A stretch of 50,722 nucleotides of DNA. Source: an uncultured Oscillospiraceae bacterium. GTDB lineage: Bacteria; Bacillota; Clostridia; Oscillospirales; Oscillospiraceae. The notes under the pieces were generated by a model that was not told the origin of the DNA, did not search any database, and saw only the letters and a program-made list of their open reading frames with translations. Where the stretch lies: the NCBI GenBank assembly GCA_944387635.1, contig CALXFT010000010.1, forward strand, positions 1-50,722, given 5' to 3'. Positions within the stretch are counted from its first letter, which is position 1, and each line of letters begins with the position of its first letter. Positions 21,847 through 45,644 of this stretch are shown in pieces. The position numbers and the translations under genes are program-made.

Positions 21847-23325
21847 ATGAGAGGAAAGAAATATGACGTATTCATCAGCTACCGCCGGGACGGCGGAGAT
21901 AATCTGGCCCAGCTGCTATATGACCGGCTGACGCAGCGGGGATACCGGGTCTTCCTGGACATCGAATCCCTCCGGGGCGGCCGGTTCAACAAGGCTATTT
22001 TGGACACCATGGACGGCTGCAGGGATGTGATCGCCGTCCTGCCGCCGGAGGGGCTGAAGCGGTGCGCGGATCCCGAGGACTGGGTCCTGCTGGAGCTGTC
22101 CCACGCCCTGAAGCAGAAGAAGAACCTGGTTCCGGTGCTCATGCGGGGGTTCCAGTGGCCCCGGCCCATGCCCCGGGGGCTGGAGGGCCTGGAGACCTAC
22201 AACGGCGTGGCCGACAACAAGGATTACTTTGACGCCGTGGTGGACCGGCTGGTCACTTTGCTGCAAAGCCGCCCGGTCCGGAAGATCCGACGCCGGACGG
22301 CGGCAGCCTGCCTGATCCTGGCGGCGGCCCTGTGCCTGGGCATCTGGTTCCGGTTCCTGGCGAAACCGACGGTCCGGGAGTCCCAGACAGAACCGAACAT
22401 TCAGACAGCCTCGGAACCGGCCGAGACACGGACTGCCGAAAGGGAAGCGGGGGAAACCGCCGAAACAGAAGCGGGAGAAATCGCCGAAACGGAAGCGCGG
22501 ACCGGGGCCTCACGGACCATTGTGGCCCTGGACGGCGGCAGCGGCCATACGGTGGCCCTTTACAGCGACGGCACGGTCAACGCCGTGGGGGACAACCGGT
22601 ACGGCCAGTGCAGCCTGTCGGACTGGACGGACGTCGTGCAGATCAGCACCATGCAGGACTTCACCGTGGGACTGCGCTCTGACGGCACCGTGGTGGCCGT
22701 GGGGGACAACCGGGAGGGCCAGTGCGAAGTGTCGGACTGGACCGACATCGTCATGGTCAGCGCGGGCCGGTATCACACCGTGGGCCTGCGCTCTGACGGC
22801 ACCGTGGTGACGGCGGGCAGCAACAGCTTCGGCCAGTGCGGGGTGGACGGCTGGACGGACATGGTGGCTGTGGCCGCCGCCTACAGCAACACCATGGGCC
22901 TGCGGTCCGACGGTACGGTGGTGATCTGCGGCAGCTTCTACGGAAAGGGCGTGACCAGGACGGTCAGCGGCTGGCAGGACATTCAGGCCATCTGCGCCAG
23001 CGACTCCCATTTTTTGGGACTGCGGGAAAACGGCAGCGTGGCGGCGGTCGGCAACAACAGCAGCGGCCAGTGCGGCATCGAGACCTGGCGGGACGCCGTG
23101 GACATTGACGGCGGCGCGGGATTCACTGTGGGACTGTTCGTCGACGGCCGGGTGGTGGTGGAGGGAATCAACGATCAGAAGCAGACAGACGCCTGCGCCT
23201 GGCGGGACATGGCCCTCATCGGTTGCGGCATTGAGCACATCGTGGGCATGAAGACCGACGGGACCCTGGTCTCCGTCGGGGACAATTCCTACGGCGAGCG
23301 GGACCTGGAGGCTCTGCTTCCCTGA
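21847..23325 (+). CDS. Membrane-anchored TIR protein with a seven-repeat RCC1 beta-propeller
   Basis: 492 residues; GAGGAG lies 10 bases before the ATG. Residues 4-100 are a bacterial TIR domain: KYDVFISYRRD, FLDIESLRGG (BB loop), and DWVLLELSHA with Glu83 at the position of the NADase catalytic glutamate. A single membrane helix spans about 151-171; six basic residues precede it and three follow, so the N terminus should be inside. After a Thr/Glu-rich linker (178-222) come seven RCC1-like repeats of 38-40 residues (225-492) with GLRSDGTVVAVGDN and GQC...WTD motifs, enough for one seven-bladed propeller, predicted outside the cell. Neighbouring RyR genes suggest a shared sensing system. Ligand and enzyme activity are unproven. 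Confidence 0.88.
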   Translation: MRGKKYDVFISYRRDGGDNLAQLLYDRLTQRGYRVFLDIESLRGGRFNKAILDTMDGCRDVIAVLPPEGLKRCADPEDWVLLELSHALKQKKNLVPVLMRGFQWPRPMPRGLEGLETYNGVADNKDYFDAVVDRLVTLLQSRPVRKIRRRTAAACLILAAALCLGIWFRFLAKPTVRESQTEPNIQTASEPAETRTAEREAGETAETEAGEIAETEARTGASRTIVALDGGSGHTVALYSDGTVNAVGDNRYGQCSLSDWTDVVQISTMQDFTVGLRSDGTVVAVGDNREGQCEVSDWTDIVMVSAGRYHTVGLRSDGTVVTAGSNSFGQCGVDGWTDMVAVAAAYSNTMGLRSDGTVVICGSFYGKGVTRTVSGWQDIQAICASDSHFLGLRENGSVAAVGNNSSGQCGIETWRDAVDIDGGAGFTVGLFVDGRVVVEGINDQKQTDACAWRDMALIGCGIEHIVGMKTDGTLVSVGDNSYGERDLEALLP

Positions 23326-23450: not shown

Positions 23451-24197
23451 TCAGTCCTCCGGGTCCGCGGTGACGATGGCCTCGTCCTCTTCCGCTCCTG
23501 AGAGCAGGGTGATGAACCGCAGGTGCCGGTTGCGGATGCGGAGCATAAGCACCGCCGCCGTCAGGAGGATGGGGCAGCACAGCAGCACCGTCCACTGGCC
23601 GAAGCTGTCGGAGAGCTTGCCGCCCACCGCCGCGCCGACCATGAAGAACAGAATCACCACCCCGTAGATCAAGGTCCGGTGCCGCCGCTCGGGATCTCCG
23701 GTGCTGCGCCAGTAGTACAGGTTCTCCACGCAGCTGCGCAGGTTGCCGATGCACATGGTGGTGGCGTAGGCGTTCCCCTCCAGCTGCCGGAAGGACTCCA
23801 CCTGTATGGCGCAGACGAAGCTGACCAGGAAGTTGGCCAGAAAGTTCAGGCTCTGGGGCAGGAAGGCAACCAGGGCCAGGACTCCCGTCTCCAGCAGCAG
23901 AATGCTGTGCCGCCAGTGGGTGACGATGCTCCGGGTGTGGAACCGGTGGCGGATCGCCTCGGCGGTGTAGATCCCCAGGGCGAAGGCCGCCACGGGCAGC
24001 AGATACCGCCCCGCCTCCATCCAGTCCCCGTGGGCCAGGTTCTGGCCCATGAGGACGATGTTGCCGGTCTGGGCGTTGGCATAGACCTGGCCCCGGACAT
24101 TATAGGTATAGGCATCCTGCAGGCCGCCGGAGGCGCTGAGCAGGCAGCCGATCAGCAGGGAGTCGGAGGCCTGTTTGGCCCGGTGCTTTCGGTACAT
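23451..24197 (-). CDS. YoaK-family (DUF1275) membrane protein
   Basis: 248 residues with about six hydrophobic helices. DUF1275 features are visible: the N-terminal LLIGCLLSASGGLQDAYTY, NAQTGNIVLMG, and ESFRQLEGNAYATTMCIGNLRS in the middle. The family is widespread and its function unknown. It lies 33 bases after frdA with its own AGGAGG and no terminator between them, followed by the strong terminator at 23402-23446, so it is probably the last gene of the mdh-frdA transcript. A role in transport linked to succinate formation is only a guess from position. Confidence 0.9.
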   Translation of the reverse strand: MYRKHRAKQASDSLLIGCLLSASGGLQDAYTYNVRGQVYANAQTGNIVLMGQNLAHGDWMEAGRYLLPVAAFALGIYTAEAIRHRFHTRSIVTHWRHSILLLETGVLALVAFLPQSLNFLANFLVSFVCAIQVESFRQLEGNAYATTMCIGNLRSCVENLYYWRSTGDPERRHRTLIYGVVILFFMVGAAVGGKLSDSFGQWTVLLCCPILLTAAVLMLRIRNRHLRFITLLSGAEEDEAIVTADPED

Positions 24198-24230: not shown

Positions 24231-25835
24231 TCAGAAATCCTTCCCCAGGGAGTTGTAGGTGGGCAGCAGCTTGGGAGAGACCACACCGGTGTCCACACCG
24301 GCCTGGTCCAGAGCCGCGTGGAAGGCCTCCACATGGGACAGGGCTGCTCTGCCCGGAGTGACCCCGGCGGCCTTGGCGGCGGCATGCCGGCCCGCGCTGC
24401 GGCCGAAGACGATGATGTCCAGCAGGCTGTTGCCCATGAGCCGGTTCCGGCCGTGGATGCCGCCCACAGCCTCGCCGGCCACGAACAGGTTCTCCACATC
24501 GGACTGGCCGTCCACGGAGATCTTCAGGCCGCCGTTCTGGTAGTGGAGGGTGGGGTAGACCAGGATGGGCTCCTTGCGGATGTCGATGCCGTACTTGCCG
24601 AACATGCGCATCATGGCGGGGATTCGCTTTTCAATGGTGCCGGGGCCGTGCTTGCGCTCGATCATGGGGGTGTCCAGCCAGACGGCATAGCCCGCCGGGG
24701 TCTTCACCCCGTTGCCCCGGTCGGAGCACTCCCGGATGATGGCGGCGGCGGACACGTCCCGGGTCTCCAGGGGGTTCATGAAGGCCTGGCCCTTGGCGTT
24801 GATGAGCATGGCGCCTACGGAGCGGACCTTTTCCGTGACCAGAGCGCCGAAGATCTGGGCGGGGAAGGCGGCGCCGGTGGGATGGTATTGCAGGGTGTCG
24901 GGGTACAGCAGCCGCGCCCCGGCCCGATAGCCCAGGACCAGGCCGTCGGCGGTGGCGCCGTAGTGGTTGGAGGTGGGGAAGCCCTGGTAGTGGAGCCGTC
25001 CCGCGCCGCCGGTGGCCAGGACCACGGTCTTGGCCCGGGCGATCAGCAGTTCCCGGGTCTCCATGTTCATGAGCACCGCGCCGGCGCACCGGCCCGACTC
25101 GTCCAGAAGCAGCTCCACGGCGGAGGTGAAGTCGATGACGGGAATGCCCCGGTTGATCACCTCGTCCCGGAGGGTCCGCATGATCTCCGCGCCGGAGTAG
25201 TCCTTGGCCGCGTGCATGCGCTTGCGGGAAGTGCCGCCGCCGTGGGTGGTAATCATGGTGCCGTCGGGGGCCTTGTCGAATTCCACGCCCAGATTGCTCA
25301 GCCACTGGATGGCCTCAGGGGCCTCGGTGACCAGTTTCGCCAGCAGGTCCTTCTGGGCGGCGAAGTGGCCGCCGCCGTAGGCGTCCAGGAAGTGCTGGGC
25401 GGGAGAGTCGCCGGGCTTGTCCGCAGCCTGGATTCCGCCCTCGGCCATCATGGTGTTGGCGTCGCCCATGCGCAGCTTGGTCACAACCATGACCTTGGCT
25501 CCGGCCTGGTGGGCCTCAATGGCCGCGGAAGCGCCGGCGCCGCCGCCGCCGATGACCAGCACGTCGGTCTCGTAGTCGGCTTTGCGCAAATCCATGGACG
25601 GGGAGATCCGGGAGCGGCCCTGGAGCAGGGCGGCCAGCTCCCTGGGTACCTTCTGGCCCTTGCTGGGGCCTACCCGCAGGACCTCGAACTGGTCCTCCCG
25701 GTAGTCCGGGTGGTAGGTCTTCAGCAGATCTTCCTTCTCCTGGGCCGTCATGCGGGGAGGATCTATGTGGATGTTGGTTTCACGGGCAGCTGCCACCAGT
25801 TCGGCGGAGGCAGCAATGACAGGATCTTGATACAT
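24231..25835 (-). CDS. frdA: Soluble fumarate reductase flavoprotein subunit (FrdA/TfrA-like)
   Basis: 534 residues. Predicted to reduce fumarate to succinate. The FAD-binding fold begins after an unusual extension of about 88 residues: DVLVIGGGGAGASAA (91-105), then NTMMAEGGI (127-135), YHPTGAAFP (317-325), and GEAVGGIHGRNRLMGNSLLD (454-473), the fumarate reductase signature. The His that binds FAD covalently in membrane SdhA/FrdA is Asn127 here, so FAD should be non-covalent, as in soluble thiol:fumarate reductase. There is no cytochrome b gene. It follows frdB by 12 bases at the end of a flx-hdr operon. An L-aspartate oxidase role is unlikely given the context. Confidence 0.85.
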   Translation of the reverse strand: MYQDPVIAASAELVAAARETNIHIDPPRMTAQEKEDLLKTYHPDYREDQFEVLRVGPSKGQKVPRELAALLQGRSRISPSMDLRKADYETDVLVIGGGGAGASAAIEAHQAGAKVMVVTKLRMGDANTMMAEGGIQAADKPGDSPAQHFLDAYGGGHFAAQKDLLAKLVTEAPEAIQWLSNLGVEFDKAPDGTMITTHGGGTSRKRMHAAKDYSGAEIMRTLRDEVINRGIPVIDFTSAVELLLDESGRCAGAVLMNMETRELLIARAKTVVLATGGAGRLHYQGFPTSNHYGATADGLVLGYRAGARLLYPDTLQYHPTGAAFPAQIFGALVTEKVRSVGAMLINAKGQAFMNPLETRDVSAAAIIRECSDRGNGVKTPAGYAVWLDTPMIERKHGPGTIEKRIPAMMRMFGKYGIDIRKEPILVYPTLHYQNGGLKISVDGQSDVENLFVAGEAVGGIHGRNRLMGNSLLDIIVFGRSAGRHAAAKAAGVTPGRAALSHVEAFHAALDQAGVDTGVVSPKLLPTYNSLGKDF

Positions 25836-25847
25836 GTTCGCCCCTCC

Positions 25848-26522
25848 TTACTTTTCGATGTCCCGGGTGTTGTACAGACGGCGCAGCTCCTCGGGAGACT
25901 GGGCCATGAGCTCCTGGAGCAGGGCCTCGTACCGGCCCTCTTTGATCTCCTCCACCCGCTTGTCCAAATGCTCGCAGATGGGAGCCAGGTATTTGCCGTT
26001 GAGGCGGCGGGCCAGCATGGCCACCTGGGGATGGGAGATGCCGGCGGGACACCGGGAGGAGCAGACGCCGCACATGACGCAGTCGAAGCTCTCCTCGGCG
26101 CACTTTTCGTACTCGCCCCGCTGGGCGTAGGCGATGTACTGCATGACGTTCAGGCCCTGGGTGCAGGCCTTGGTGCAGGCGTTGCAGCCTACGCAGGCGT
26201 AGATCTCCGGGTACAGCTGCATCATGATCTGCTGGGAGGGACGCACCTTTTCAATGTCGTAGACCGCCTTGACCAGGGGGAAGAAGGGCAGGGTTGCCAC
26301 ATACATGTTGTCCTCGACCTTGGTTGAGCAGGCCAGGCAGGCGTGGAGCTCCCGGTCTCCGGCGATCCGGTACAAGGTGGCGCATGCGCCGCAGAAGCCG
26401 TTGCGGCAGCCGCAGCCCCGGACAAGCTGGTATCCGGCAAACTCCATGGCCTCCATAATGGTGGCGCTGGCGGGCACGGCGTAGCGCTTGCCGTAGAGGT
26501 ATACGTTAACCATTTGTTCCAT
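25848..26522 (-). CDS. frdB: Fumarate reductase iron-sulfur subunit (TfrB N-terminal-like)
   Basis: 224 residues. An N-terminal 2Fe-2S domain has Cys37, 39, 44, 47, 62 and 65 (RGCGCRNGFCGAC, ACLAC). Two CxxCxxCxxxC sites follow: Cys110/113/116/120 and Cys148/151/154/158. Usual SdhB/FrdB has one 4Fe-4S and one 3Fe-4S site; here both look like full 4Fe-4S sites. The HdrB-like CCG half of TfrB (thiol:fumarate reductase) is missing, but separate HdrB and HdrC are encoded in the same operon. It should pass electrons to FrdA. It lies 12 bases after flxA. Confidence 0.85.
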   Translation of the reverse strand: MEQMVNVYLYGKRYAVPASATIMEAMEFAGYQLVRGCGCRNGFCGACATLYRIAGDRELHACLACSTKVEDNMYVATLPFFPLVKAVYDIEKVRPSQQIMMQLYPEIYACVGCNACTKACTQGLNVMQYIAYAQRGEYEKCAEESFDCVMCGVCSSRCPAGISHPQVAMLARRLNGKYLAPICEHLDKRVEEIKEGRYEALLQELMAQSPEELRRLYNTRDIEK

Positions 26523-26534
26523 TGTCTCGTCTCC

Positions 26535-27368
26535 TTAATATTCATCCGGAAGCTGGGCCATCTGGTCCAGCCGGAACACCGGGCCGTCCTTGCAGACGTA
26601 CTTGTCGCCGATGTTGCACCGGCCGCACTTGCCCAGGGCGCACTTCATTTTCAGCTCGAAGGTGGTGTAGACCTGGTCCCGCCGAAAGCCCAGCTCCTCC
26701 AGACCGGCCAGGGTGAACTTGATCATTACGGGAGGTCCGCACATGACCACGGTCTTGCCCGTGTCGAAGGCCAGCTCCTTGACGTAGTTGGGAACGAAGC
26801 CCACATGGCCGTCCCAGTCGGGCTGGGGGTTGTCGATGGTCAGGTGGACGGTGACGCCGTCCTCCCGGCACCATTGCTGGAGGATCTCATCGTAGTCCAC
26901 CAGGTCCTCCTTGCTCCGGGCGCCGTAGACGATGTCCACGGAACCGTAGCGGCCGCGGTGGTGGCGGACGTAGTTGATTACCGAGCGCAGAGGCGCCAGG
27001 CCGATGCCGCCGGCGATGAACAGCAGGTCCTTCCCCACAAAGTCCGTGTCCACGGGGAAGCCGTTGCCGTAGGGACCCCGGAGCGTCACCTGCTGGCCCG
27101 GCTCAATGGCGTGGAGCCAATTGGTGACGCAGCCGCACTTCTTGATGGAGAACTCCAGGTAATCGGCGTTGGTGGGGGAGGAGGTAATGGAGAACAGAGC
27201 CTCGCCGACGCCGGGCATGGAAAGCATGGCGCACTGGCCGGGAATGTGCTCCATGGGCTTCTTCCCGTCCAGACCCACCACCCGGAAGGTCTTGACGTCG
27301 GGGGTGTCGGTGCGGATGTCGGTGACCAGGGCCACCATGGGGATCAGAGGATCGCGCAAAATGCTCAT
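26535..27368 (-). CDS. flxA: FAD/NAD(P)-binding flavin oxidoreductase subunit FlxA
   Basis: 277 residues from the ATG at 27366-27368, which overlaps the flxB stop by 4 bases. A ferredoxin-NADP reductase fold: an FAD domain with FSITSSP (59-65), a nucleotide domain with AGGIGLAPLRS (119-129) and MCGPP, and a C-terminal 2Fe-2S site with Cys243, 248, 251 and 259. It is related to the gamma subunits of sulfhydrogenase and anaerobic sulfite reductase. In FlxABCD-HdrABC it is the NADH entry point. The name is based on gene order together with domains. Confidence 0.85.
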   Translation of the reverse strand: MSILRDPLIPMVALVTDIRTDTPDVKTFRVVGLDGKKPMEHIPGQCAMLSMPGVGEALFSITSSPTNADYLEFSIKKCGCVTNWLHAIEPGQQVTLRGPYGNGFPVDTDFVGKDLLFIAGGIGLAPLRSVINYVRHHRGRYGSVDIVYGARSKEDLVDYDEILQQWCREDGVTVHLTIDNPQPDWDGHVGFVPNYVKELAFDTGKTVVMCGPPVMIKFTLAGLEELGFRRDQVYTTFELKMKCALGKCGRCNIGDKYVCKDGPVFRLDQMAQLPDEY

Positions 27369-28366
27369 GCTTTGCCCTCCTTCAACGCTTTGGCGACTTT
27401 GACAATGTTCATGGAGATGGGACACTTTTGCAGGCACCTTCCGCAGCCGACGCAGCCGATCTGCCCGGCGTGGTTGTTGGGGTGGTAGACCAGCTTGTGC
27501 ATGAAGCGCTGACGGAACCGCTCCTTCTGCGTGGGCCGGTTGGTGCCGTGGGCCATCATGGTGAAGTCGGAGTACATGCAGCTGTCCCAGCAGCGGAACC
27601 GGCGGATCGTGGCGCCGCCGTCGAAGTCCTCGACGTCGTAGCACTGGCAGGTGGGGCAGACAAAGGTGCAGCTGCCGCAGCCCAGGCAGCTCTGGGAGAG
27701 GCTGTCCCAGACGGGGCTGTTGAACCAGTCCATCAGGGGCTTCTCCCCGAAGACCGAGAAGTCCAGATCCTTCAGAGGCAGCCTATGGAAGACGGAGGCG
27801 TCGGTCTGCGGTTTCTCTCCCTGGCCAAGCTGAGGCAGGGAGGAAAGAAGGGCCTGGCCTTTTTCCGTGTTGGCCTCTAAGTACAGGGTGTCCTCCATGG
27901 CCCAGCAGGAGACGTCTCCGGCAGGGGCCTGGGGATCGATGCCCAGGCTGGTGCAGAAGCAGGTCTCCTCGGGCTCGGAGCAGGCCAGGGTCATGACCGT
28001 GGCGTGGGACCGGCGGTCGGCGTAGAAGGTGTCCACAGGGTCGGAAAGGAACACGGAGTCCAGAATGTCAAAGCTGCGGCAGTCACAGGCCCGGACGCCG
28101 AAAATTACGAAGTCCTCCACTTCCTCCCGGCCCGGCTCCACCTGAATCCGGCGGCCGGAGACCTTGAAGTTCACCAGATTCTCCACCTGGGGGAAGAACA
28201 GGTCCTTGGCGCTGCGGCCGGTGTTCAGGGCCTTGGTCATGGACAGGCCCGGCGTCCAGAGGGTAAAGGCCGGCTGGCCCGCCGCGTCGGCGGGGATGTA
28301 GAGCTTCTGAGCCGCGGCAATGGCGGCGAAGAGACTGTCAAGTTCGGAAAGCTTCCAGGTTTTCAT
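27365..28366 (-). CDS. flxB: 4Fe-4S electron-transfer subunit FlxB
   Basis: 333 residues. An AsrA/HydB-like protein with two C-terminal ferredoxin-type sites, Cys227/230/233/237 and Cys305/308/311/315, plus further cysteines (94, 96, 129, 136, 138) in the N-terminal region. It would relay electrons from FlxA towards FlxC/FlxD and HdrA. Both ends overlap neighbours by 4 bases, indicating a tightly coupled complex. No signal peptide, so cytoplasmic. Confidence 0.85.
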   Translation of the reverse strand: MKTWKLSELDSLFAAIAAAQKLYIPADAAGQPAFTLWTPGLSMTKALNTGRSAKDLFFPQVENLVNFKVSGRRIQVEPGREEVEDFVIFGVRACDCRSFDILDSVFLSDPVDTFYADRRSHATVMTLACSEPEETCFCTSLGIDPQAPAGDVSCWAMEDTLYLEANTEKGQALLSSLPQLGQGEKPQTDASVFHRLPLKDLDFSVFGEKPLMDWFNSPVWDSLSQSCLGCGSCTFVCPTCQCYDVEDFDGGATIRRFRCWDSCMYSDFTMMAHGTNRPTQKERFRQRFMHKLVYHPNNHAGQIGCVGCGRCLQKCPISMNIVKVAKALKEGKA

Positions 28367-29337
28367 TGGCCGTCCCTCCCGTTGGTGATGATGGATGCCT
28401 CCGGGTCCTCCGGGGTGAAGGCCAGCATGGGGGGCTTGGAATCAAAGTCAGCGCCCGCCTGGTAGGGACCGTACAGCTGGTTCATGTCCTTGATGAGCTT
28501 CCGGTTCAGCAGATGCAGGGGGATGCCCTGGGGGCAGACCCGGGAGCACTCGCCGCAGTCGGTGCAGCGTCCGGCCACGTGGAAGGCCCGGATGATGTGG
28601 AACAGGTTCTCTTCAAAGCTGTCGGCGGCGGCCTTGTTCCGGACCCCGGAGCCGGGGTTGTCGAAGACGCACTTTTCGCAGGAGCAGGCGGGGCAGACAT
28701 TGCGGCAGGCGTTGCAGCGGATGCACTTGCTCAGCTCGCTTCTCCAGAAGGCGAACCGCTCTTCCGGCGTCATGGCCTCCAGGGCCTCCACCTGGGCGAA
28801 GCGGTCGGAGGGAAGATCCCCGCCCTGCTCGCCGATGATCTCGTCGCAGTCGTTTAAGCGCTTGCTCTTGCAGACGCGGCACCGGAGGGACAGGGCCTCC
28901 CGGCGGGGGACGGTCTTCTCCCCGTAGAGGGTGGAGACGATCAGATTGTCCCCCACCTCCCGGGCGGCGGTGACGCCCCTGAGGCCCAGGGCCTTCAGAG
29001 AGTCCATGTCGATCATGCCGTCGCACTGGACGCCTACGGCATAGACCTTGTCCCGGGCGATCCGGTGCTCCTTTTGCAGCTGGACAAAGGAGAAGGTGTC
29101 GCAGGGCTTTAAGAACACGGCGATCTTCCCCTCTTTCCGGCTCTCGGCGATGAGGTACTTGGACAGGTTCGGCCCGCAGAAGGGGTTATAGACCATCTGG
29201 GTCCGGACCTCTTCGGCGGAGGTGAACACCGCCGGGGTCACGTCGTAGAAAAATTCGCCGGTCTTCCAGCCCAGGACCCGGGTGCAGACGCCGCTTTCCA
29301 GCAGGGCGGCGGCTTTTTCCATTACTCTGTCTTGCAT
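28363..29337 (-). CDS. flxC: 4Fe-4S electron-transfer subunit FlxC (F420-hydrogenase beta-like)
   Basis: 324 residues from the ATG at 29335-29337; a longer frame would run deep into flxD. Residues 1-150 resemble the FrhB/FdhB-like fold (VYNPFCGPNLSKYL, VFLKPCDTFSFVQL, GVQCDGMID). Cysteines 153, 156 and 164 may bind a cluster. Two ferredoxin sites follow (Cys205/208/211/215 and Cys258/261/264/268), with an extra CSCEKC motif between them. It overlaps flxD by 16 bases and flxB by 4. Predicted to bridge FlxA/B and the MvhD-like FlxD. Confidence 0.83.
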   Translation of the reverse strand: MQDRVMEKAAALLESGVCTRVLGWKTGEFFYDVTPAVFTSAEEVRTQMVYNPFCGPNLSKYLIAESRKEGKIAVFLKPCDTFSFVQLQKEHRIARDKVYAVGVQCDGMIDMDSLKALGLRGVTAAREVGDNLIVSTLYGEKTVPRREALSLRCRVCKSKRLNDCDEIIGEQGGDLPSDRFAQVEALEAMTPEERFAFWRSELSKCIRCNACRNVCPACSCEKCVFDNPGSGVRNKAAADSFEENLFHIIRAFHVAGRCTDCGECSRVCPQGIPLHLLNRKLIKDMNQLYGPYQAGADFDSKPPMLAFTPEDPEASIITNGRDGQ

Positions 29338-29762
29338 CGCAGATCCTCCAATCTCCGGTTGGGTCCCAGCTTGATGATGGTTTCGGTGAAGTCGTTCATG
29401 GTGGCGGCGAATTTCGCGCCCTCGGCGGCGGAGACCCACTCCACCCGGGTCCGGCCCCGCTCAATGCCCATGTAGTCCAGCAGGGAGAACAGGAGCGTCA
29501 TCCGGCGGCGGGCATAGTAGTTGCCCGTGGTGTAGTGGCAGTCGCCGGGGTGGCAGCCGCACAGGATCACCCCGTCGGCGCCCCGCTGGAAGGCCCGCAG
29601 AATGAACATGGGGTTCAGGCGGCAGGAGCAGGGAATGCGGATGATCTTTACATTGGCGGGGTACTGCAGCCGGTTGGTGCCGGACAGATCCGCGCCCGCG
29701 TAGGAACACCAGTTGCAGCAGAAGGCCACAATGGTGGGCTTGAACGTTTCGTTTACCGGCAT
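29322..29762 (-). CDS. flxD: MvhD-like iron-sulfur subunit FlxD
   Basis: 146 residues from the ATG at 29760-29762. MvhD carries a 2Fe-2S centre and passes electrons to the flavin of HdrA. Conserved cysteines are visible at 15, 16 and 19 (CCNWCSYAGAD), 45 and 47 (PCSCRLNP), and 68, 70 and 75 (CGCHPGDCHY). It overlaps hdrA by 10 bases, consistent with a fixed subunit ratio. Confidence 0.92.
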   Translation of the reverse strand: MPVNETFKPTIVAFCCNWCSYAGADLSGTNRLQYPANVKIIRIPCSCRLNPMFILRAFQRGADGVILCGCHPGDCHYTTGNYYARRRMTLLFSLLDYMGIERGRTRVEWVSAAEGAKFAATMNDFTETIIKLGPNRRLEDLRCKTE

Positions 29763-31750
29763 ATGGCATCCACCTCCGCCATGATTTGTTGATTGGAGAA
29801 GCCCTGAAGGTCCATGGCTCCCGAGGGACAGGCAACGGTACAGGCGCCGCAGCCCTGGCACACCGCCGGATTCACCTGGGCCACGCGGCGGATCAGGGTG
29901 GTCCGGTTGGGACCCCGGAAGGGCTTGTCAATGTAGGTAATGGCCCCGTAGGGGCAGACCTTCTCACAGCTGGAGCAGCCGTTGCACATGAGCTCGTCGG
30001 GCTTGGCGGTGCAGGGGCTGCAGGTCAGGGAGTCCTTGACCAGCAGGCCGATGACCTTGGCGGCGGCGGCGCTGGCCTGGGCTACGGTCTCGGGGATATC
30101 CTTGGGACCCTGGCAGGCGCCGGAGAGGAAGATGCCCGCCGTGGGGCTCTCCACAGGGCGCAGCTTGGGATGGGCCTCGGTGAAGAAGTCGTTGGTGTCC
30201 ATGGAGGCGGTGAGCATGGTGGCCAGGGGCCGGGCGGTCTTGTCCGGCTCGATGGCGGCGGCCAGGATCACCATGTCCGCGTCGATGCGCAGCTGCCGCC
30301 CGCCCAGCAGGTCCGATGCCTGGACCTTCAGCTTGCCGTCCTGGGGAGTGACTTTGCCCACCATGCCCTTGATATAGTGCACGCCGTATTCCTCCACGGC
30401 CCGGCGGTAGAACTCGTCGAAGTTCTTGCCCGGGGTCCGGACGTCGATGTAGAACACATACACCTCCGTATCCGGGTACTTCTCCCGGATCAGCATGGCG
30501 TGCTTGGCGGTGTACATGCAGCAGATCTTGGAGCAGTAGGACTTGCCCTTCTCCCCGCCGTCGCACCGGGAGCCGACGCACTGGACGAAGACCAGGGTGT
30601 GGGGGTGGGAACCGTCCGAGGGCCGCAGCAGAGTGCCGCCGGTGGGTCCGGCCGCGTTCATCAGCCGCTCAAACTCCAGGCTGGTGACCACGTCGGGGCT
30701 CTGGGAGTAGGCGAACTCGTCGAACTTGTCCAGCCGGATGGGCTCGAAGCCGGTGGCCACCACAATGGCGCCGTATTCCCGGGTGATCAGCTGGTCTTGC
30801 TGCTTGTAGTCGATGGCCCCGGCGGTGCAGACCTTGGCGCAGACGCCGCACTTGCCGGACTTGAGCATGGTGCAGTAGTTGGGGTCGATGGCGGCCACCT
30901 TGGGTACGGCCTGGGCGAAGGGGATGTAAATGGCCCGCCGGTTGTCCAGGCCCAGGTTGAATTCGTTGGGTACCTTCTTCTGGGGACACTTCTCGGTGCA
31001 CAGGCCGCAGCCGGTGCACTTGGTCTCGTCCACATACCGGGCCTTCTTCCGGATGGTCACGGAGAAGCTGCCCACGAAGCCCTGGACCTTTTCCACCTGG
31101 GCGTAGGAGATGATGTCAATGTTCTCGTTCTGGGACGCGTCCACCATTTTCGGGGTCAGGATGCAGGCGGCGCAGTCCAGGGTGGGGAAGGTCTTGTCGA
31201 TCTGGGCCATTTTACCGCCGATGGTGGGCTTCTTCTCCACAATGTCCACGGGGAAGCCGGCCTCGGCAATGTCCAGAGCGGTCTGGATGCCGGCAATGCC
31301 GCCGCCGATGACCAAGGCCCGCTTGGTCACAGGGCTCTGTCCCGCGGTCAGGGGCGCGTTGAGCTGGACCTTGGCAATGGCGGCCCGGCCCAGGATCACG
31401 GCCTTTTCCGTGGCGGTGAGCTTGTCCTTGTGAATCCAGGAGCAGTGCTCCCGGATGTTGGCGATCTCCAGCAGGTAGGGGTTCAGGCCCGCCTTCTCCA
31501 CGGTCTTTCGGAAGGTGGCCTCGTGCATCCGGGGGGAGCAGGAGCAGATCACCACGCCGGTGAGCCGGTGCTCCCGGATGGCGTTCTGGATCATCTCCTG
31601 GCCCGCCTGGGAGCACATATATTGGTAGTGGGTGGAGTACACCACGCCCGGCTCCTGGGCCAGGGTCTGGGCCACCTTTTCCACGTCTACAGTGGCGGCA
31701 ATGTTGCTGCCGCACCAGCAGACGAATACGCCGATTCTTTGCATACTCAA
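29753..31750 (-). CDS. hdrA: Heterodisulfide reductase subunit A (electron-bifurcating flavoprotein)
   Basis: 665 residues, the common HdrA length. The N-terminal domain has CWCGSNI (11-17) and CSCSPRMHE. The FAD fold has VIGGGIAGIQTALDIAEAG (147-165) and PTIGGKMAQIDKTFPTLDC. Inserted ferredoxin sites lie at Cys245/248/251/255 and around Cys293-308, and two more are at the C terminus (CNGCSSCEKVC, CQGCGACTVAC). HdrA holds the bifurcating FAD, which splits electron pairs between ferredoxin and HdrBC. No selenocysteine is needed. It overlaps hdrC by 4 bases. Confidence 0.95.
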   Translation of the reverse strand: MSMQRIGVFVCWCGSNIAATVDVEKVAQTLAQEPGVVYSTHYQYMCSQAGQEMIQNAIREHRLTGVVICSCSPRMHEATFRKTVEKAGLNPYLLEIANIREHCSWIHKDKLTATEKAVILGRAAIAKVQLNAPLTAGQSPVTKRALVIGGGIAGIQTALDIAEAGFPVDIVEKKPTIGGKMAQIDKTFPTLDCAACILTPKMVDASQNENIDIISYAQVEKVQGFVGSFSVTIRKKARYVDETKCTGCGLCTEKCPQKKVPNEFNLGLDNRRAIYIPFAQAVPKVAAIDPNYCTMLKSGKCGVCAKVCTAGAIDYKQQDQLITREYGAIVVATGFEPIRLDKFDEFAYSQSPDVVTSLEFERLMNAAGPTGGTLLRPSDGSHPHTLVFVQCVGSRCDGGEKGKSYCSKICCMYTAKHAMLIREKYPDTEVYVFYIDVRTPGKNFDEFYRRAVEEYGVHYIKGMVGKVTPQDGKLKVQASDLLGGRQLRIDADMVILAAAIEPDKTARPLATMLTASMDTNDFFTEAHPKLRPVESPTAGIFLSGACQGPKDIPETVAQASAAAAKVIGLLVKDSLTCSPCTAKPDELMCNGCSSCEKVCPYGAITYIDKPFRGPNRTTLIRRVAQVNPAVCQGCGACTVACPSGAMDLQGFSNQQIMAEVDAICR

Positions 31751-32133
31751 CCTCCCTTGCTGTATTTGCGCAGGGCGCTGGTGATGGCCTGCTGGGGCAG
31801 GTCCTCCTCCAGAAGCCCGGGGATCTGATCCGGCTTCATGTGGTTGCCGCCCTGCTGCCGGATCACGGCCAGGCGCACGGCCTCGATGATGTGGGCGGGC
31901 TCCACGTTTCTGGGGCAGCGCTCCACACAGGCAAAGCAGCTTAAGCAGGTGTAGATCCCCCTGGAGGCCATGAGCTCCTCCACCCGTCCGCTCTGGACCA
32001 TGTCCACGAACTGGTGGGGATGGTACTCCATCCGGTCATAGGCGGGGCAGGCGGCGGTGCACTTGCCGCACTTCATGCATTTGCGGGGGTTGACCCCGGA
32101 AATGTCCTGAATCCGCTGGGTCCAATCGCTCAT
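31747..32133 (-). CDS. hdrC: Heterodisulfide reductase subunit C
   Basis: 128 residues with two 4Fe-4S sites, Cys19/22/25/29 (CMKCGKCTAAC) and Cys63/66/69/73 (CLSCFACVERC). It wires HdrA to HdrB. It overlaps hdrB and hdrA by 4 bases each. The organism should lack the methanogen CoM-S-S-CoB substrate, so the electron acceptor downstream of HdrB is different. Confidence 0.93.
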   Translation of the reverse strand: MSDWTQRIQDISGVNPRKCMKCGKCTAACPAYDRMEYHPHQFVDMVQSGRVEELMASRGIYTCLSCFACVERCPRNVEPAHIIEAVRLAVIRQQGGNHMKPDQIPGLLEEDLPQQAITSALRKYSKGG

Positions 32134-32921
32134 TGCGCTTCCTCCTTAAGGCCCAGGGCCTGGGCCAGCAGTTCGGTGAAGTAGACCACCGGCAGCTTGC
32201 CGCCGCCGTTTTTCTGAAGGTTGTACAGGCACAGGGGGCAGGCGGTGGTCAGGGTTTCGGCTCCCTGGGCGGCGGCGTTGTCCTCCACGGCGGCGGCTCT
32301 GGTCCGGGCCAGGGACCGGTCCTCCAGGGTCACATAGCCGCCGCAGCACTCGTTGCGCTGGGCGTAGATCACAGGCTCGGCGCCGATTGCCCGGATAAAG
32401 TCCTCCATAATGGTGGGATTCTCCGGATCGTCAAAGGCCATCTGGCGGCTGGGCCGCAGAAGCAGGCAGCCGTAGTAGGCGCCGATTTTTTTCCCCGTCA
32501 GGGGGTTCTTCACCTGCTTTGCCAGGTTGTCGAAGCCCACCGCGTCCCGCAGGACCTCCAGATAGTGCAGCACCTGAGTTTCTCCCGCGTAGGGGGTCTC
32601 CGGGGCCAGGTAGGTGTTGGCCCGGTCGCGGAAGGTCTCGTCCCGGGCGATATCGCAGTTGGTCCGCTTGATCACATGGTGGCAGGCCGAGCACAGTGTG
32701 ACCAGGGGGCGGTTTAACGCCCGGGCGTCCATGAGAGCCCGGACCGAGGACAGGCGGCTGGCAATCTCATCCTTGGCCAGGGGATAGACCGCCCCGCAGC
32801 ACTGCCACTGGGGCAGCTCCTCCAGGGTGATCCCCAGGGCCTCCATGGAGACCCTGCCCCACCGGTCCAGGTCCGCGGCCTGGGTCTTCAGGGTGCAGCC
32901 GGGGAAATAGGCATAGGTCAT
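32130..32921 (-). CDS. hdrB: Heterodisulfide reductase subunit B
   Basis: 263 residues. Both CCG domains are intact: Cys9, Cys41-Cys42, Cys77, Cys80 for the first and Cys152, Cys192-Cys193, Cys228, Cys231 for the second. In methanogen HdrB these bind two non-cubane 4Fe-4S clusters that reduce the disulfide. Retention of all ligands argues for a working thiol/disulfide site or a relay to the fumarate reductase encoded downstream. AGGAGG precedes the ATG; 14 bases separate it from fumC. Confidence 0.93.
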   Translation of the reverse strand: MTYAYFPGCTLKTQAADLDRWGRVSMEALGITLEELPQWQCCGAVYPLAKDEIASRLSSVRALMDARALNRPLVTLCSACHHVIKRTNCDIARDETFRDRANTYLAPETPYAGETQVLHYLEVLRDAVGFDNLAKQVKNPLTGKKIGAYYGCLLLRPSRQMAFDDPENPTIMEDFIRAIGAEPVIYAQRNECCGGYVTLEDRSLARTRAAAVEDNAAAQGAETLTTACPLCLYNLQKNGGGKLPVVYFTELLAQALGLKEEAQ

Positions 32922-32935
32922 GGCGTCTTTCCTCC

Positions 32936-34312
<1,377 letters not shown>

Positions 34313-34334
34313 TGGTTCCTCCTGTTGTCTGTAA

Positions 34335-35282
34335 TTACAATTCCAGCTGGGCGATGATGGACTTGAGCTTCTCGGCGCTGTACTGGAGCTTCTTGACCTC
34401 TTCCACGGTCAGATCGTTGGTGATCTTGCCCCGGACGCCGGTTTTGTCCACCATGTTCAGAATGGACAGGCACACGTCGTCCACGCCGTACTCTCCGTGC
34501 ATCATGGTGGACACGGTCAGGGCGGTGCCGGCTCCGTTGAAGATGCACTTGCAGATGTGGCACACAGACACGGCCACGGCGTAGAAGGTGGCGCCCTTGG
34601 CTTTGATCACCTGGCTGCCGGAGGTGCGGACAAAGTCCTCCACCTCGTCATAGTCGTAGTTCCACTTGATCTCGTCGCCGTGGGGAGCGTGGGCCTTGTA
34701 CTCGTCGATGTGGTTGTTGGCGATGTGGACCAGGGACCAGGGGACGAAGGAGGAGTCCCCGTGCTCGCCGTAGACATGGGCGTGGACGTTCTTGGGGCTG
34801 ATGGAGAACCGCTGGGCCAGGGTGGCCTGGAGGCGGCTGGTGTCCAGAATGGTGCCGGAGCCGATGATCTGATTCTCGGGCAGGCCGGAGATCTTGGTGA
34901 ACACGTAGGTCAGCACGTCCACGGGGTTGGACACAATGATATAGATGGCCTTGGGGGCGGCGGCCACAATGCTGGGGGTGATCTGCTTAATCACATCCAC
35001 ATTGGCCTGGGCCAGATCCAGACGGCTCTGACCGGCCTTCCGGGGCAGGCCCGAGGTGATGATCACCACGTCGGAACCGGCGGCGTCGGCATAGTCTCCG
35101 GCCCGGACGATGGTGGGAGAGCCGAAGGTGGCGCCCTGATAGATGTCCAAAGCCTCACCGAAGGCCTTTTCCTGGTTGATGTCGATGAGAACAATCTCAG
35201 AGGCGATGCCCTGGATCATCAGATCGTTGGCGATGGTGGCGCCTACGCTTCCTGCGCCGATGACGCTGATTTTCTTGCTCAT
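34335..35282 (-). CDS. mdh: Malate dehydrogenase of lactate-dehydrogenase type
   Basis: 315 residues from the ATG at 35280-35282 (AAGGAG 8-9 bases upstream). An NAD-dependent 2-hydroxyacid dehydrogenase with GAGSVGATIA (9-18), Asp147, Arg150 and His174 (GEHGDSS) in their catalytic places. Much of the sequence is LDH-like (GSGTILDTSR, GEHGDS, KGATFYA), but the substrate-specificity loop reads GLPRKAGQSR, with Arg81 where LDH has Gln102. That exchange is known to turn LDH towards oxaloacetate, and the gene leads a fumarate-reduction operon, so malate formation is favoured. A plain LDH remains possible. Confidence 0.85.
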   Translation of the reverse strand: MSKKISVIGAGSVGATIANDLMIQGIASEIVLIDINQEKAFGEALDIYQGATFGSPTIVRAGDYADAAGSDVVIITSGLPRKAGQSRLDLAQANVDVIKQITPSIVAAAPKAIYIIVSNPVDVLTYVFTKISGLPENQIIGSGTILDTSRLQATLAQRFSISPKNVHAHVYGEHGDSSFVPWSLVHIANNHIDEYKAHAPHGDEIKWNYDYDEVEDFVRTSGSQVIKAKGATFYAVAVSVCHICKCIFNGAGTALTVSTMMHGEYGVDDVCLSILNMVDKTGVRGKITNDLTVEEVKKLQYSAEKLKSIIAQLEL

Positions 35283-41511: not shown

Positions 41512-42840
41512 ATGGCGTTTTCTTTTTTCGGAGGGGTCCATCCCGAAGAAAATAAGTGGTATGCCTGTGACAAGCAGACCCAGATCTATCCGTCGCCGGA
41601 TATTGTGGTCATCCCTATGTCTCAGCATATCGGCGCCCCCTGCAAGCCCCTGGTAAAGAAGGGGGATCTGGTCACCATGGGTCAGAAGATCGGTGACAAC
41701 CAGGGCCTGTGCGTACCGGTCCACGCTTCCGTCTCCGGCAAGGTCAAGGCTGTGGAGGCCAGGGCGCACACCAGCGGCACTACGGTCCTCAGCGTGGTCA
41801 TCGAGAACGACCACCAGGACACCCTGTGCCCGGACATCCGCAAGCGTACGCAGGAGCAGGTGGACGCACTGACCGCCCAGGAAATGGTGGACATCATCCA
41901 CGAGGCCGGCATCGTGGGTATGGGCGGCGCGACCTTCCCCACACACGTCAAGCTCTCCGGCGCCATCGGCAAGGTGGACACGGTGATTATCAACGCCGGA
42001 GAATGCGAGCCCTACATCACGGCGGACGACCGGCTGTGCCAGGAGGAGCCTGAGAAGCTCATCGCCGGTCTGAAGCTCATCATGAAGATCCTGGGCCTGA
42101 AGGAAGGACATATCGCCATCGAGGACAACAAGCCCCAGGCGGTCCGGATGCTGAAGGCCAATCTGGCCGCCTCCGACGGCATCCACGTGGACGTGCTGCC
42201 CGCCAAGTACCCCCAGGGCGCGGAGAAACAGCTGATCTACGCGGTTACCGGCCGGGAGGTCCCCTCCGGCGGCCTGCCTGCGGCGGTGGGCTGCGCCGTG
42301 TTCAACGCCGCCACCTGTAAGGCCATTTACGATGCGGTCTACGACGGCATGCCCCTGATCCGCCGGATCGTCACGGTCTCCGGCGACGTCCTCATGGAGC
42401 CGAAGAACCTGCTGGTACCCATCGGCACCTCCTTCAACGACCTCATCGACGCCTGCGGCCACTCCGAGTACCCCTACAAGGTCCTCTCCGGCGGCCCCAT
42501 GATGGGCGTGGCTCAGTATGATCTGAACGTACCTACCATCAAGGGCGTCAACGCCATCACCGTCCTGGGCCGCCGCAACGCCTATGCCGTGGAGGACTCC
42601 CGGTGCCTGCGCTGCGGCAAGTGCATCGAAGTCTGCCCCATGAAGCTGATGCCTGTTCTGATGTACAAGTCCATCCAGTCCAACAGCGTCGAGGAGATGA
42701 AGGCAAACAACATTATGGACTGCATCGAGTGCGGCTGCTGCGCCTATACCTGCCCCGCCAGCGTCCCCCTGGTCCTGGGCTTCCGGGTAGCAAAGCAGCT
42801 GATCCGCAACGAGGCGGCCAAGGAAAAAGCAAAGGCTTAA
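41512..42840 (+). CDS. rnfC: Rnf complex subunit RnfC (NADH-binding)
   Basis: 442 residues, the compact clostridial form. RnfC is the cytoplasmic subunit that binds NAD(H) in the membrane ferredoxin:NAD+ oxidoreductase. The N-terminal barrel-sandwich segment (SQHIGAPCKPLVKKGDLVTMGQ) is followed by the nucleotide loop GMGGATFPTHVKL, ECEPYIT, and two C-terminal 4Fe-4S sites (CLRCGKCIEVC from about 365 and CIECGCCAYTC from about 404). AGAGGTG precedes the ATG. First gene of rnfCDGEAB. Confidence 0.96.
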   Translation: MAFSFFGGVHPEENKWYACDKQTQIYPSPDIVVIPMSQHIGAPCKPLVKKGDLVTMGQKIGDNQGLCVPVHASVSGKVKAVEARAHTSGTTVLSVVIENDHQDTLCPDIRKRTQEQVDALTAQEMVDIIHEAGIVGMGGATFPTHVKLSGAIGKVDTVIINAGECEPYITADDRLCQEEPEKLIAGLKLIMKILGLKEGHIAIEDNKPQAVRMLKANLAASDGIHVDVLPAKYPQGAEKQLIYAVTGREVPSGGLPAAVGCAVFNAATCKAIYDAVYDGMPLIRRIVTVSGDVLMEPKNLLVPIGTSFNDLIDACGHSEYPYKVLSGGPMMGVAQYDLNVPTIKGVNAITVLGRRNAYAVEDSRCLRCGKCIEVCPMKLMPVLMYKSIQSNSVEEMKANNIMDCIECGCCAYTCPASVPLVLGFRVAKQLIRNEAAKEKAKA

Positions 42841-42853
42841 GGAGGCGGAACGA

Positions 42854-43852
42854 ATGGCACAGATGAAATATTTTTATGAGCTGACGATTTCCAGCTCGCC
42901 CCACGTTCACGCTCCCATGACCACCCAGACCATCATGCGGGATGTGCTCATTGCCCTGGCTCCCGCTATGGTGGGCGCGATCTACTTCTTCGGCTTCCGG
43001 GCCCTTATGGTGACTCTGGTCAGCGTGGCCGCCTGCGTGTTCTTTGAATGGGCCTACTGCAAGCTCACCAAGCGCCACTGCAAGGTCTACGACCTGTCCG
43101 CTGTGGTCACCGGTGTTCTGCTGGCCTTTGTGTGTCCCGTGACCATTCCCTACTGGACCATCATTCTGGGCGCCTTCTTCGCCATTGTCCTGGTGAAGAT
43201 GCTCTTCGGCGGCCTGGGCCGGAACATCGTCAACCCCGCCCTGGCGGGCCGGGCCTTCATGTTCAGCTGGCCGGTGCTCATGAGCACCTGGGTGAAGGTG
43301 GGCTTTGAGAATTCCGCGGGCCTGCTGTCCACTGCCGACGCGGTGACCGCCGCCACCCCTCTGGCCAGCATGCACCAGGGGCTTATGCCCGAGGAGTCCG
43401 TGCTGGATATGTTCCTGGGCAACGTAGGCGGCTGTATGGGCGAGACCTCCGCCATGCTGCTACTCATCGGCTTCGCCTACCTGCTCCACCGGCAGGTCCT
43501 GACACTGCGTATCCCTGTGTCTTACCTGGGTACCGTGGCGGTTCTGACCTTCCTGTTCCCCCAGGGCAATGACCGGATCGCCTGGATGGCCGCCCAGCTG
43601 TTCAGCGGCGGCCTGATGCTGGGCGCCCTGTTCATGGCAACCGACTACGTCACCTCTCCCGTAACCAAGCTGGGTCAGATCCTCTACGGCATCGGCTGCG
43701 GCCTTTTGACCGTACTGATCCGCTACTTCGGCGGCTACAGCGAGGGCGTCTCCTACGCCATCCTGGTGATGAACGCCTGCGTGGTCCTGCTGGACCGGAT
43801 CGGCCGTCCTGTGAAGTTCGGCGCACCCAAGAAGGAGGCGGCAAAGGAATGA
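42854..43852 (+). CDS. rnfD: Rnf complex subunit RnfD
   Basis: 332 residues with about nine membrane helices. RnfD (related to NqrB) carries covalent FMN on a threonine; the expected motif appears as DAVTAATPL at about 162-170. It helps couple electron flow to Na+ or H+ transport. NPALAGRAFMF is typical of the family. It overlaps rnfG by 4 bases and lies 13 bases after rnfC. Confidence 0.95.
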   Translation: MAQMKYFYELTISSSPHVHAPMTTQTIMRDVLIALAPAMVGAIYFFGFRALMVTLVSVAACVFFEWAYCKLTKRHCKVYDLSAVVTGVLLAFVCPVTIPYWTIILGAFFAIVLVKMLFGGLGRNIVNPALAGRAFMFSWPVLMSTWVKVGFENSAGLLSTADAVTAATPLASMHQGLMPEESVLDMFLGNVGGCMGETSAMLLLIGFAYLLHRQVLTLRIPVSYLGTVAVLTFLFPQGNDRIAWMAAQLFSGGLMLGALFMATDYVTSPVTKLGQILYGIGCGLLTVLIRYFGGYSEGVSYAILVMNACVVLLDRIGRPVKFGAPKKEAAKE

Positions 43853-44397: not shown

Positions 44398-44409
44398 GGA
44401 GGTATTCTT

Positions 44410-45632: not shown

Positions 45633-45644
45633 GGAGGGCGAAGT

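What the first reader, a model, noticed from the sequence alone, without database searches (positions are those of the whole stretch)
24231..35282. One operon for quinone-free, electron-bifurcating fumarate reduction
The order mdh-fumC-hdrB-hdrC-hdrA-flxD-flxC-flxB-flxA-frdB-frdA has gaps of at most 22 bases and many overlaps. It encodes oxaloacetate to succinate plus a complete FlxABCD-HdrABC module. In sulfate reducers that module is thought to oxidise NADH and split electrons between ferredoxin and a disulfide. Here a soluble FrdAB without cytochrome b is added. I infer 2 NADH + fumarate + oxidised ferredoxin giving succinate and reduced ferredoxin, either by direct HdrB-to-FrdB transfer or through a thiol/disulfide carrier.
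Basis: partly seen in the sequence, partly recalled or inferred. Interest (0 to 1): 0.85.

Follow-up and report, generated by a model that had tools for sequence, protein, structure and literature searches.

The report
NADH-driven fumarate reductase operon, gut Clostridia
An unnamed, probably gut-dwelling Clostridium-like bacterium, apparently without quinones, carries one operon that probably turns oxaloacetate into succinate using NADH while also charging ferredoxin; the idea is already in print for one thermophile, and here the operon turns out to be common among related gut bacteria and to use its own dedicated type of electron-transfer subunits.

Summary
The operon is real. Eleven same-strand genes, mdh-fumC-hdrBCA-flxDCBA-frdBA, lie at 24231-35282; the largest gap is 22 bases and six junctions overlap. 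Cofactor and catalytic motifs are intact. The held genome (90% complete) has no UbiA or MqnA/D match and menD only below cut-off. Gene order holds in 80 of 80 loci, the best of 572 hits. The idea is not new: a 2020 paper describes the same 'succinate operon' in Pseudoclostridium thermosuccinogenes and cites a 2019 preprint proposing electron bifurcation. New here: of 398 genomes in the phylum, 39 have frdB, in several neighbourhoods. A distinct HdrB type occurs in 27 genomes, all frdB-positive, and in 0 of 359 frdB-negative ones. Five genomes have hdrC-hdrB-frdB-frdA with no HdrA/Flx beside it (one cut by a contig end). FrdB lacks the HdrB-like domain that TfrB has. I therefore favour direct transfer HdrC-HdrB-FrdB-FrdA over a free thiol carrier. 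Against strict coupling: 17 of 38 other frdB genomes have no hdrB beside frdBA, and four have no HdrA or HdrB match at the thresholds used. Bifurcation itself is untested.

The parts
34335..35282 (-). mdh, LDH-like malate dehydrogenase (oxaloacetate to malate)
   Evidence: Pfam Ldh_1_N/C; TIGR01771 above cut-off but Arg at the specificity position (rule recalled)
32936..34312 (-). fumC, class II fumarase
   Evidence: Lyase_1 and FumaraseC_C
32130..32921 (-). hdrB, Frd-type, two CCG motifs (two non-cubane [4Fe-4S] sites by family)
   Evidence: PF02754, two stretches; ten cysteines conserved in 36 of 36 Frd-type HdrBs; phmmer to solved HdrBs 8rvv and 5odc
31747..32133 (-). hdrC, two [4Fe-4S] clusters
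   Evidence: Fer4_8 and TIGR03290 matches
29753..31750 (-). hdrA, flavin hub of electron bifurcation (role by family); no in-frame stop, unlike many relatives
   Evidence: HdrA2 NF040770 803.6 bits, Fer4 and FAD/NAD folds; no stop inside
29322..29762 (-). flxD (MvhD-like)
   Evidence: PF02662 183.6 bits
28363..29337 (-). flxC, iron-sulfur protein
   Evidence: Fer4_8/Fer4_17
27365..28366 (-). flxB, AsrA/sulfhydrogenase-beta-like iron-sulfur protein
   Evidence: Fer4_22, NF040829 154.4 bits
26535..27368 (-). flxA, FAD/NAD(H)-binding diaphorase subunit
   Evidence: PF00175, PF00970, PF10418
25848..26522 (-). frdB, [2Fe-2S] plus two [4Fe-4S] motifs, no CCG domain
   Evidence: C39/C44/C47/C65, C110/C113/C116/C120 and C148/C151/C154/C158 invariant in 21 of 21; matches TfrB residues 19-152 only
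24231..25835 (-). frdA, fumarate reductase flavoprotein with ~85-aa N-terminal extension and no match to the SdhA C-terminal part
   Evidence: TfrA 336.7 bits (profile 5-405 of 546), SdhA/FrdA 281.4 bits; H318, E335, R338, R359, H431, R465 invariant in 15 of 15; aligned with E. coli FrdA

Best explanation
The operon makes a cytoplasmic NADH-dependent, ferredoxin-coupled fumarate reductase, fed with fumarate by its own Mdh and FumC. FlxA takes hydride from NADH; FlxBCD pass electrons to the HdrA flavin; HdrA sends one electron of each pair down to ferredoxin and the other up through HdrC and the two non-cubane clusters of HdrB directly into FrdB and the FrdA flavin. Net (inferred): 2 NADH + fumarate + oxidised ferredoxin give 2 NAD+ + succinate + reduced ferredoxin. 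Reduced ferredoxin can then be used by Rnf (genes in the same window) or by [FeFe] hydrogenases. Shown here: genes, motifs, conserved order, co-occurrence of a distinct Hdr type with FrdAB. Inferred: direction, bifurcation, direct contact.
For: Complete Flx-Hdr and FrdAB with intact motifs. Order contiguous in 80 of 80 loci; same gene content in reshuffled order (frdBA before hdrBCA-flxDCBA) in 4 genomes of two other families. HdrB tree, 84 rows: a 100/99-supported branch holds 29 frd-linked HdrBs (window included) plus 7 from genomes where frdBA lies elsewhere, and none of the 36 from frdB-negative genomes. A profile of that type finds 27 genomes, all frdB-positive; 0 of 359 frdB-negative genomes, of which 122 have another HdrB at 1e-30. 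Five genomes carry hdrC-hdrB-frdB-frdA with no HdrA/Flx beside it in the stretch held (one stretch is only 3.8 kb), pointing to HdrBC as FrdB's partner. TfrB matches FrdB with its N-terminal part and HdrB with its C-terminal part, weakly, a fusion precedent. Own genome: one HdrB, one full-length FrdA-type match, no UbiA or MqnA/D, menD 63.3 vs cut-off 244.2 bits, Rnf at 41512-46514, two [FeFe] hydrogenase matches.
Against: No biochemistry. 17 of 38 other frdB genomes have no hdrB match beside frdBA in the fetched stretch (two of them have a weak hdrC-like match), and 4 (G263, G266, G490, G571) have no HdrA match at 1e-60 and no HdrB match at 1e-30, so FrdAB can work with another donor. HdrA and HdrC trees split by frd linkage about as well as HdrB (2 and 1 changes, HdrB 2), so the trees do not single out HdrB. 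All five hdrCB-frdBA genomes also have a generic HdrB in a separate Flx-Hdr operon, which leaves room for a thiol carrier there. Closeness of HdrB to the SdhE model is uninformative: generic HdrBs match it as well. In the own family only 2 of the 15 listed genomes have this FrdB, so the trait is patchy.
Confidence: 0.6

Rival explanations
1. Thiol carrier: HdrABC-Flx reduces a small disulfide with NADH and FrdAB oxidises the dithiol, as thiol:fumarate reductase (TfrAB) does with CoM-SH and CoB-SH.
For: All ten CCG cysteines are kept in Frd-type HdrB. Best NCBIfam match of FrdA is TfrA. The five hdrCB-frdBA genomes also hold a generic HdrB in a separate Flx-Hdr operon, i.e. two CCG proteins that could reduce and re-oxidise a carrier.
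Against: FrdB lacks the CCG domain that TfrB has. Only one HdrB was found in the window's genome (the other CCG hit is a 797-aa protein that I liken by eye to the diclust_near_Sec family), so one site would have to do both half reactions.
Confidence: 0.2
2. FrdAB is not wired to Hdr: it takes electrons from ferredoxin or another donor, and the Flx-Hdr module works on its own disulfide in the same pathway.
For: frdBA stands directly after a pyruvate carboxylase-like gene in three genomes without HdrA/HdrB matches (L190, L191, L193), beside multihaem cytochrome-like genes in L175 and L178, and beside FMN-binding and Fe-S-like genes in L187 (gene names by eye).
Against: 27 of 39 frdB genomes have the Frd-type HdrB, and 0 of 359 frdB-negative genomes do; two gene orders with the same content.
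Confidence: 0.12
3. The system runs backwards: succinate plus reduced ferredoxin reduce 2 NAD+ by electron confurcation, i.e. it oxidises succinate.
For: Some relatives of frdBA lie beside fumarase and malic enzyme-like genes in genomes whose lifestyle is unknown here (names by eye); the reaction is reversible in principle.
Against: At standard potentials the reductive direction is favoured by 33-48 kJ/mol; the close relatives are gut MAGs (titles; fermentative life assumed); the organism of the published operon makes succinate.
Confidence: 0.06

Closest known systems
'Succinate operon' of Pseudoclostridium thermosuccinogenes (PMC7282089, 2020: passages and outline seen; Koendjbiharie and van Kranenburg preprint 2019: title only)
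   Same: Fumarate hydratase (CDQ83_RS03365), Flx-Hdr block (RS03360-30, seven genes if tags run in steps of five), fumarate reductase (RS03325-20), in that order; same bifurcation hypothesis; about 4-fold up under CO2 limitation, not significant for all subunits.
   Different: The window adds mdh in front. Sequences and the gene behind frdA were not compared, since that genome was not among the named loci fetched.
FlxABCD-HdrABC of Desulfovibrio vulgaris (Ramos et al. 2015, recalled; seen only as a reference)
   Same: All seven subunits present.
   Different: FrdAB and fumarate-pathway genes in the operon; Hdr subunits of a lineage apart from Flx-Hdr of frdB-negative genomes of the phylum. The D. 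vulgaris sequences were not compared.
Thiol:fumarate reductase TfrAB of methanogens
   Same: Soluble, cytochrome-free (recalled); FrdA best matches TfrA.
   Different: No CCG domain in FrdB; scores below the TfrA/TfrB cut-offs (336.7 vs 718, 33.7 vs 385 bits); separate HdrBC instead.
HdrABC complexes with solved HdrB (5odc, 8rvu and others)
   Same: HdrB aligns over its length.
   Different: NADH module instead of hydrogenase; fumarate instead of CoM-S-S-CoB as high-potential acceptor (inferred).

Membership tests
FlxABCD-HdrABC | All seven subunits with NAD/FAD, FAD and Fe-S motifs | tested here: met
FlxABCD-HdrABC | NADH oxidation with bifurcation to ferredoxin | not testable with these tools
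   needs enzyme assays
Fumarate reductase / succinate dehydrogenase flavoprotein | Catalytic His, Glu and Arg residues (roles recalled) | tested here: met
   invariant in 15 of 15; aligned with E. coli FrdA
Quinol:fumarate reductase (FrdABCD / SdhABCD) | Membrane anchor in the gene cluster and quinone synthesis | tested here: not met
   no anchor gene among the eleven; no UbiA or MqnA/D match, menD below cut-off. No genome-wide search for the cytochrome b family was run.
Thiol:fumarate reductase TfrAB | CCG domain in the iron-sulfur subunit | tested here: not met
   FrdB, 224 aa, matches TfrB 19-152 only
8-methylmenaquinol:fumarate reductase (SdhABE) | NCBIfam equivalog cut-offs for SdhA, SdhB and SdhE | tested here: not met
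   220.3 vs 1100, 19.7 vs 600 and 144.2 vs 500 bits
P. thermosuccinogenes succinate operon | Fumarase, then Flx-Hdr block, then two-gene Frd | tested here: met
   description; seven Flx-Hdr genes inferred from tag numbers; sequences not compared

The most novel reading that the evidence does not exclude
There is a distinct 'fumarate-type' Hdr lineage whose HdrBC pair is an adaptor that plugs a soluble FrdBA directly onto different electron hubs: Flx-HdrA for NADH bifurcation, a double-HdrA hub without FlxAB, or a hub encoded elsewhere. HdrB's non-cubane clusters would then serve as a wire to fumarate rather than as a disulfide-cleaving site, making fumarate a direct high-potential acceptor of flavin-based electron bifurcation in many quinone-free gut Clostridia.
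Probability: 0.45. Interest if true: 0.75.

Novelty: new member of a known kind. Interest (0 to 1): 0.5.

Why it matters
It would explain how gut Clostridia without quinones or a membrane fumarate reductase could make succinate and still gain energy: fumarate reduction would charge ferredoxin for Rnf. Fumarate would be a direct acceptor in flavin-based bifurcation. The survey gives concrete test cases (five hdrCB-frdBA operons, four reshuffled operons, four genomes with frdBA and no Hdr match) that separate direct wiring from a thiol carrier.

Tried and rejected
Rejected or weakened: (1) HdrB as a quinone-anchor (SdhE-like) subunit because its best NCBIfam match is SdhE: five generic HdrBs match the same model with 167-196 bits. 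(2) Loss of a disulfide site in Frd-type HdrB: residues conserved in generic HdrB (H48, R83, W186, R238 in window numbering) are lost, but H48 and R83 have no evident counterpart, by eye, in the methanogen HdrBs aligned, so this says little. (3) 'Only HdrB tracks FrdAB': HdrA, HdrC and FlxD trees also split by linkage with 2, 1 and 3 changes. (4) Rnf as part of a conserved neighbourhood: no rnfC, D, G or E match in the ~20 kb stretches aimed upstream of the operon in 10 relatives. (5) The YoaK-like gene as a member: 1 of 80 loci. (6) LDH instead of MDH: see observation check.

Limits of the counts. A first gene-order run used wrong starts for flxC and flxA (stops in the query) and missed some copies; one search replaced it. 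The 80 loci are the best of 572 hits, so close relatives are over-represented. Into the HdrB tree went 83 of the 139 HdrB rows plus the window: left out were 5 second copies, 1 weak hit (L204, 40 bits), and 50 of 60 rows from L031-L110. The profile A2 was built from 11 Frd-type HdrBs including three unlinked cases, so one search is partly circular; the gap (376 to 286 bits, G475 at 315 between) and the four unlinked cases not in the profile (G206, G405, G430, G542) are the less circular part. Fisher values (7e-33; 4e-24 among HdrB-bearing genomes) ignore relatedness; the 27 genomes fall in 10 families. Neighbours of frdBA were read gene by gene in 15 of the 17 unlinked loci; L176 and L192 were not resolved. 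Papers: searches found no other report of a bifurcating fumarate reductase in the rows listed (40 of 71 shown, 30 of 32, 25 of 78; open-licence library only). Passages were seen of PMC7282089, PMC6776011, PMC9044749, PMC12773636 and PMC7382037, none read whole.
Full report
OBSERVATION. The eleven genes are present at the stated coordinates on the minus strand, with junctions from +22 to -16 bases. FlxA carries NAD- and FAD-binding domains plus the DHODB-type Fe-S domain; FlxD is MvhD-like; HdrA matches HdrA2 over most of its length; HdrB has two CCG stretches; FrdB has a [2Fe-2S] motif and two CxxCxxCxxxC motifs, invariant in 21 of 21 aligned relatives. FrdA keeps fumarate reductase catalytic residues (15 of 15; aligned with E. 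coli FrdA; residue roles recalled), has about 85 residues in front of the FAD domain, and lacks a match to the last ~140-160 positions of the TfrA/SdhA profiles. At the place of the covalent-FAD histidine of E. coli FrdA it has another residue (alignment; role recalled), so FAD is probably non-covalent.

GENOME CONTEXT. The own genome (2.36 Mb, 106 contigs, 90% complete) has one full-length FrdA-type match, one HdrB (two CCG stretches) plus one other CCG hit, one HdrA match at 1e-60, two [FeFe] hydrogenase matches, and RnfD in the window within a run that I read as rnfCDGEAB at 41512-46514. It has no UbiA and no MqnA/D match, and menD only below cut-off; PF00346 is absent. This is consistent with a quinone-free cytoplasmic route; absence in a 90% complete assembly is not proof, and the Sdh cytochrome b family was not searched genome-wide.

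CONSERVATION. In the same order, 38 of 197 genomes (own included) have an FrdB with 360 bits or more, and the next match has 40 bits. Of the 15 own-family genomes listed there, only the window's and one of the same genus have it, so it is patchy. In all 80 the genes found form one contiguous same-strand run of the window's order: 45 have the full eleven, 12 start at fumC although there is room for mdh, one (L048) starts at hdrB with room for fumC, and 22 stop at or near the left end of the stretch (L090 also lacks frdA at its right end).

PRIOR ART. [quoted passage not shown] about 4-fold up under CO2 limitation, though not significant for all subunits; [quoted passage not shown] It also reports from earlier work that hydrogen in the headspace nearly abolished succinate, which its authors find consistent with a ferredoxin-coupled enzyme. 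No other paper in the library holds that preprint number. By contrast a 2026 paper on Blautia luti (passages) measures viologen-dependent fumarate reductase and assumes a plain NADH-dependent enzyme in its model, with no mention of Hdr or Flx. The finding is thus a new member of a proposed kind.

COMPARATIVE RESULT. Among 398 genomes of the phylum, 39 (own included) have FrdB at 1e-25. I fetched the surroundings of the 38 others and mapped the window's genes on them. Five have frdBA with full hdrABC-flxABCD, four of these with frdBA in front instead of behind. Eleven have flxD and a distant flxC in front of frdBA and no flxA or flxB match; nine of them also show hdrC, hdrB, hdrA and a second HdrA-like gene, while L168 (hdrA only) and L174 (neither) are cut by contig ends. 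Five have hdrC-hdrB-frdB-frdA and no HdrA/Flx match (L188 is only 3.8 kb and lacks frdA); fumarase-like genes lie just upstream in L164, L196 and L197 and a TRAP-transporter-like gene in L164 and L196, but not in L183 (by eye). Seventeen have no hdrB match beside frdBA (L177 and L179 have a weak hdrC-like match); neighbours read by eye in 15 of them include fumarase and malic enzyme, cytochrome-like genes, pyruvate carboxylase and thiamine genes.

HdrB TYPES. HdrB was taken from these loci, the 19 other stretches and 40 more Flx-Hdr stretches where a hit was found, giving an 84-row tree. One branch (100/99) separates 36 rows (29 frd-linked with the window, 7 from frdB genomes with frdBA elsewhere, 0 from frdB-negative genomes) from 48 rows (36 frdB-negative, 11 from frdB genomes unlinked, 1 linked: G475). 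A profile of the first type over all 398 genomes gave 27 genomes at 376 bits or more, G475 at 315, and the rest at 286 or less. All 27 are frdB-positive. Of 359 frdB-negative genomes none has it, though 122 have another HdrB at 1e-30. Of 39 frdB genomes, 12 lack it: G475 (between), G449 (operon cut by a contig end), G325, five with generic HdrB only (G229, G235, G270, G275, G573), and four with no HdrB at 1e-30 and no HdrA at 1e-60 (G263, G266, G490, G571). HdrA, HdrC and FlxD trees also split by frd linkage, so this is a dedicated Hdr lineage, not HdrB alone.

MECHANISM. FrdB lacks the CCG domain of TfrB, whose N-terminal part matches FrdB and whose C-terminal part matches HdrB, weakly. One HdrB was found in the own genome. 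Five genomes reduce the cluster to hdrCB-frdBA. Together these favour HdrC-HdrB-FrdB-FrdA as a direct path, with HdrA as the bifurcation point (inference from the known role of HdrA). The net reaction is exergonic at standard potentials (potentials recalled). Direction, stoichiometry and complex formation remain untested, and frdBA in four genomes without Hdr matches shows that the module is not tied to this partner everywhere.

VERDICT. Observation confirmed; interpretation plausible, already proposed elsewhere, here extended by distribution, variants and a dedicated Hdr lineage that favours direct wiring.

Noticed in passing
41512-46514 (+): Rnf operon (read as rnfCDGEAB) about 6 kb upstream of mdh on the other strand; a natural sink for reduced ferredoxin, but no rnfC/D/G/E match upstream of the operon in 10 relatives.
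   Followed up: yes
G209, G293, G407 and many other matches: Many HdrA matches of the phylum have a single in-frame TGA, possibly selenocysteine; the window HdrA has none.
   Followed up: no
L133 584-12703: Variant operon: malic enzyme-like, hdrC, hdrB, hdrA, a 1070-aa protein that looks like two HdrA-like halves, flxD, flxC-like, frdB, frdA, with no flxA/flxB match; electron source unclear.
   Followed up: partly
L175, L178, L187: frdBA beside multihaem cytochrome-like genes (L175, L178) or FMN-binding and HdrC-like Fe-S genes (L175, L187), names by eye: a possible membrane-linked form of the same FrdBA.
   Followed up: partly
L190, L191, L193: frdBA directly after a 1144-aa pyruvate carboxylase-like gene in genomes with no HdrA/HdrB match; donor unknown.
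   Followed up: partly
21847-23325 (+): 492-aa protein with a TIR-like start and RCC1-like repeats (by eye).
   Followed up: no
23451-24197 (-): YoaK/DUF1275-like protein (recalled name) 33 bases after frdA; P. thermosuccinogenes has a possible succinate transporter at this place, but the gene matches in only 1 of 80 relatives.
   Followed up: partly
G000:C26:26404-26649 (L242): 797-aa frame with CCG motifs that resembles the diclust_near_Sec family (by eye), the only other CCG hit in the genome.
   Followed up: partly
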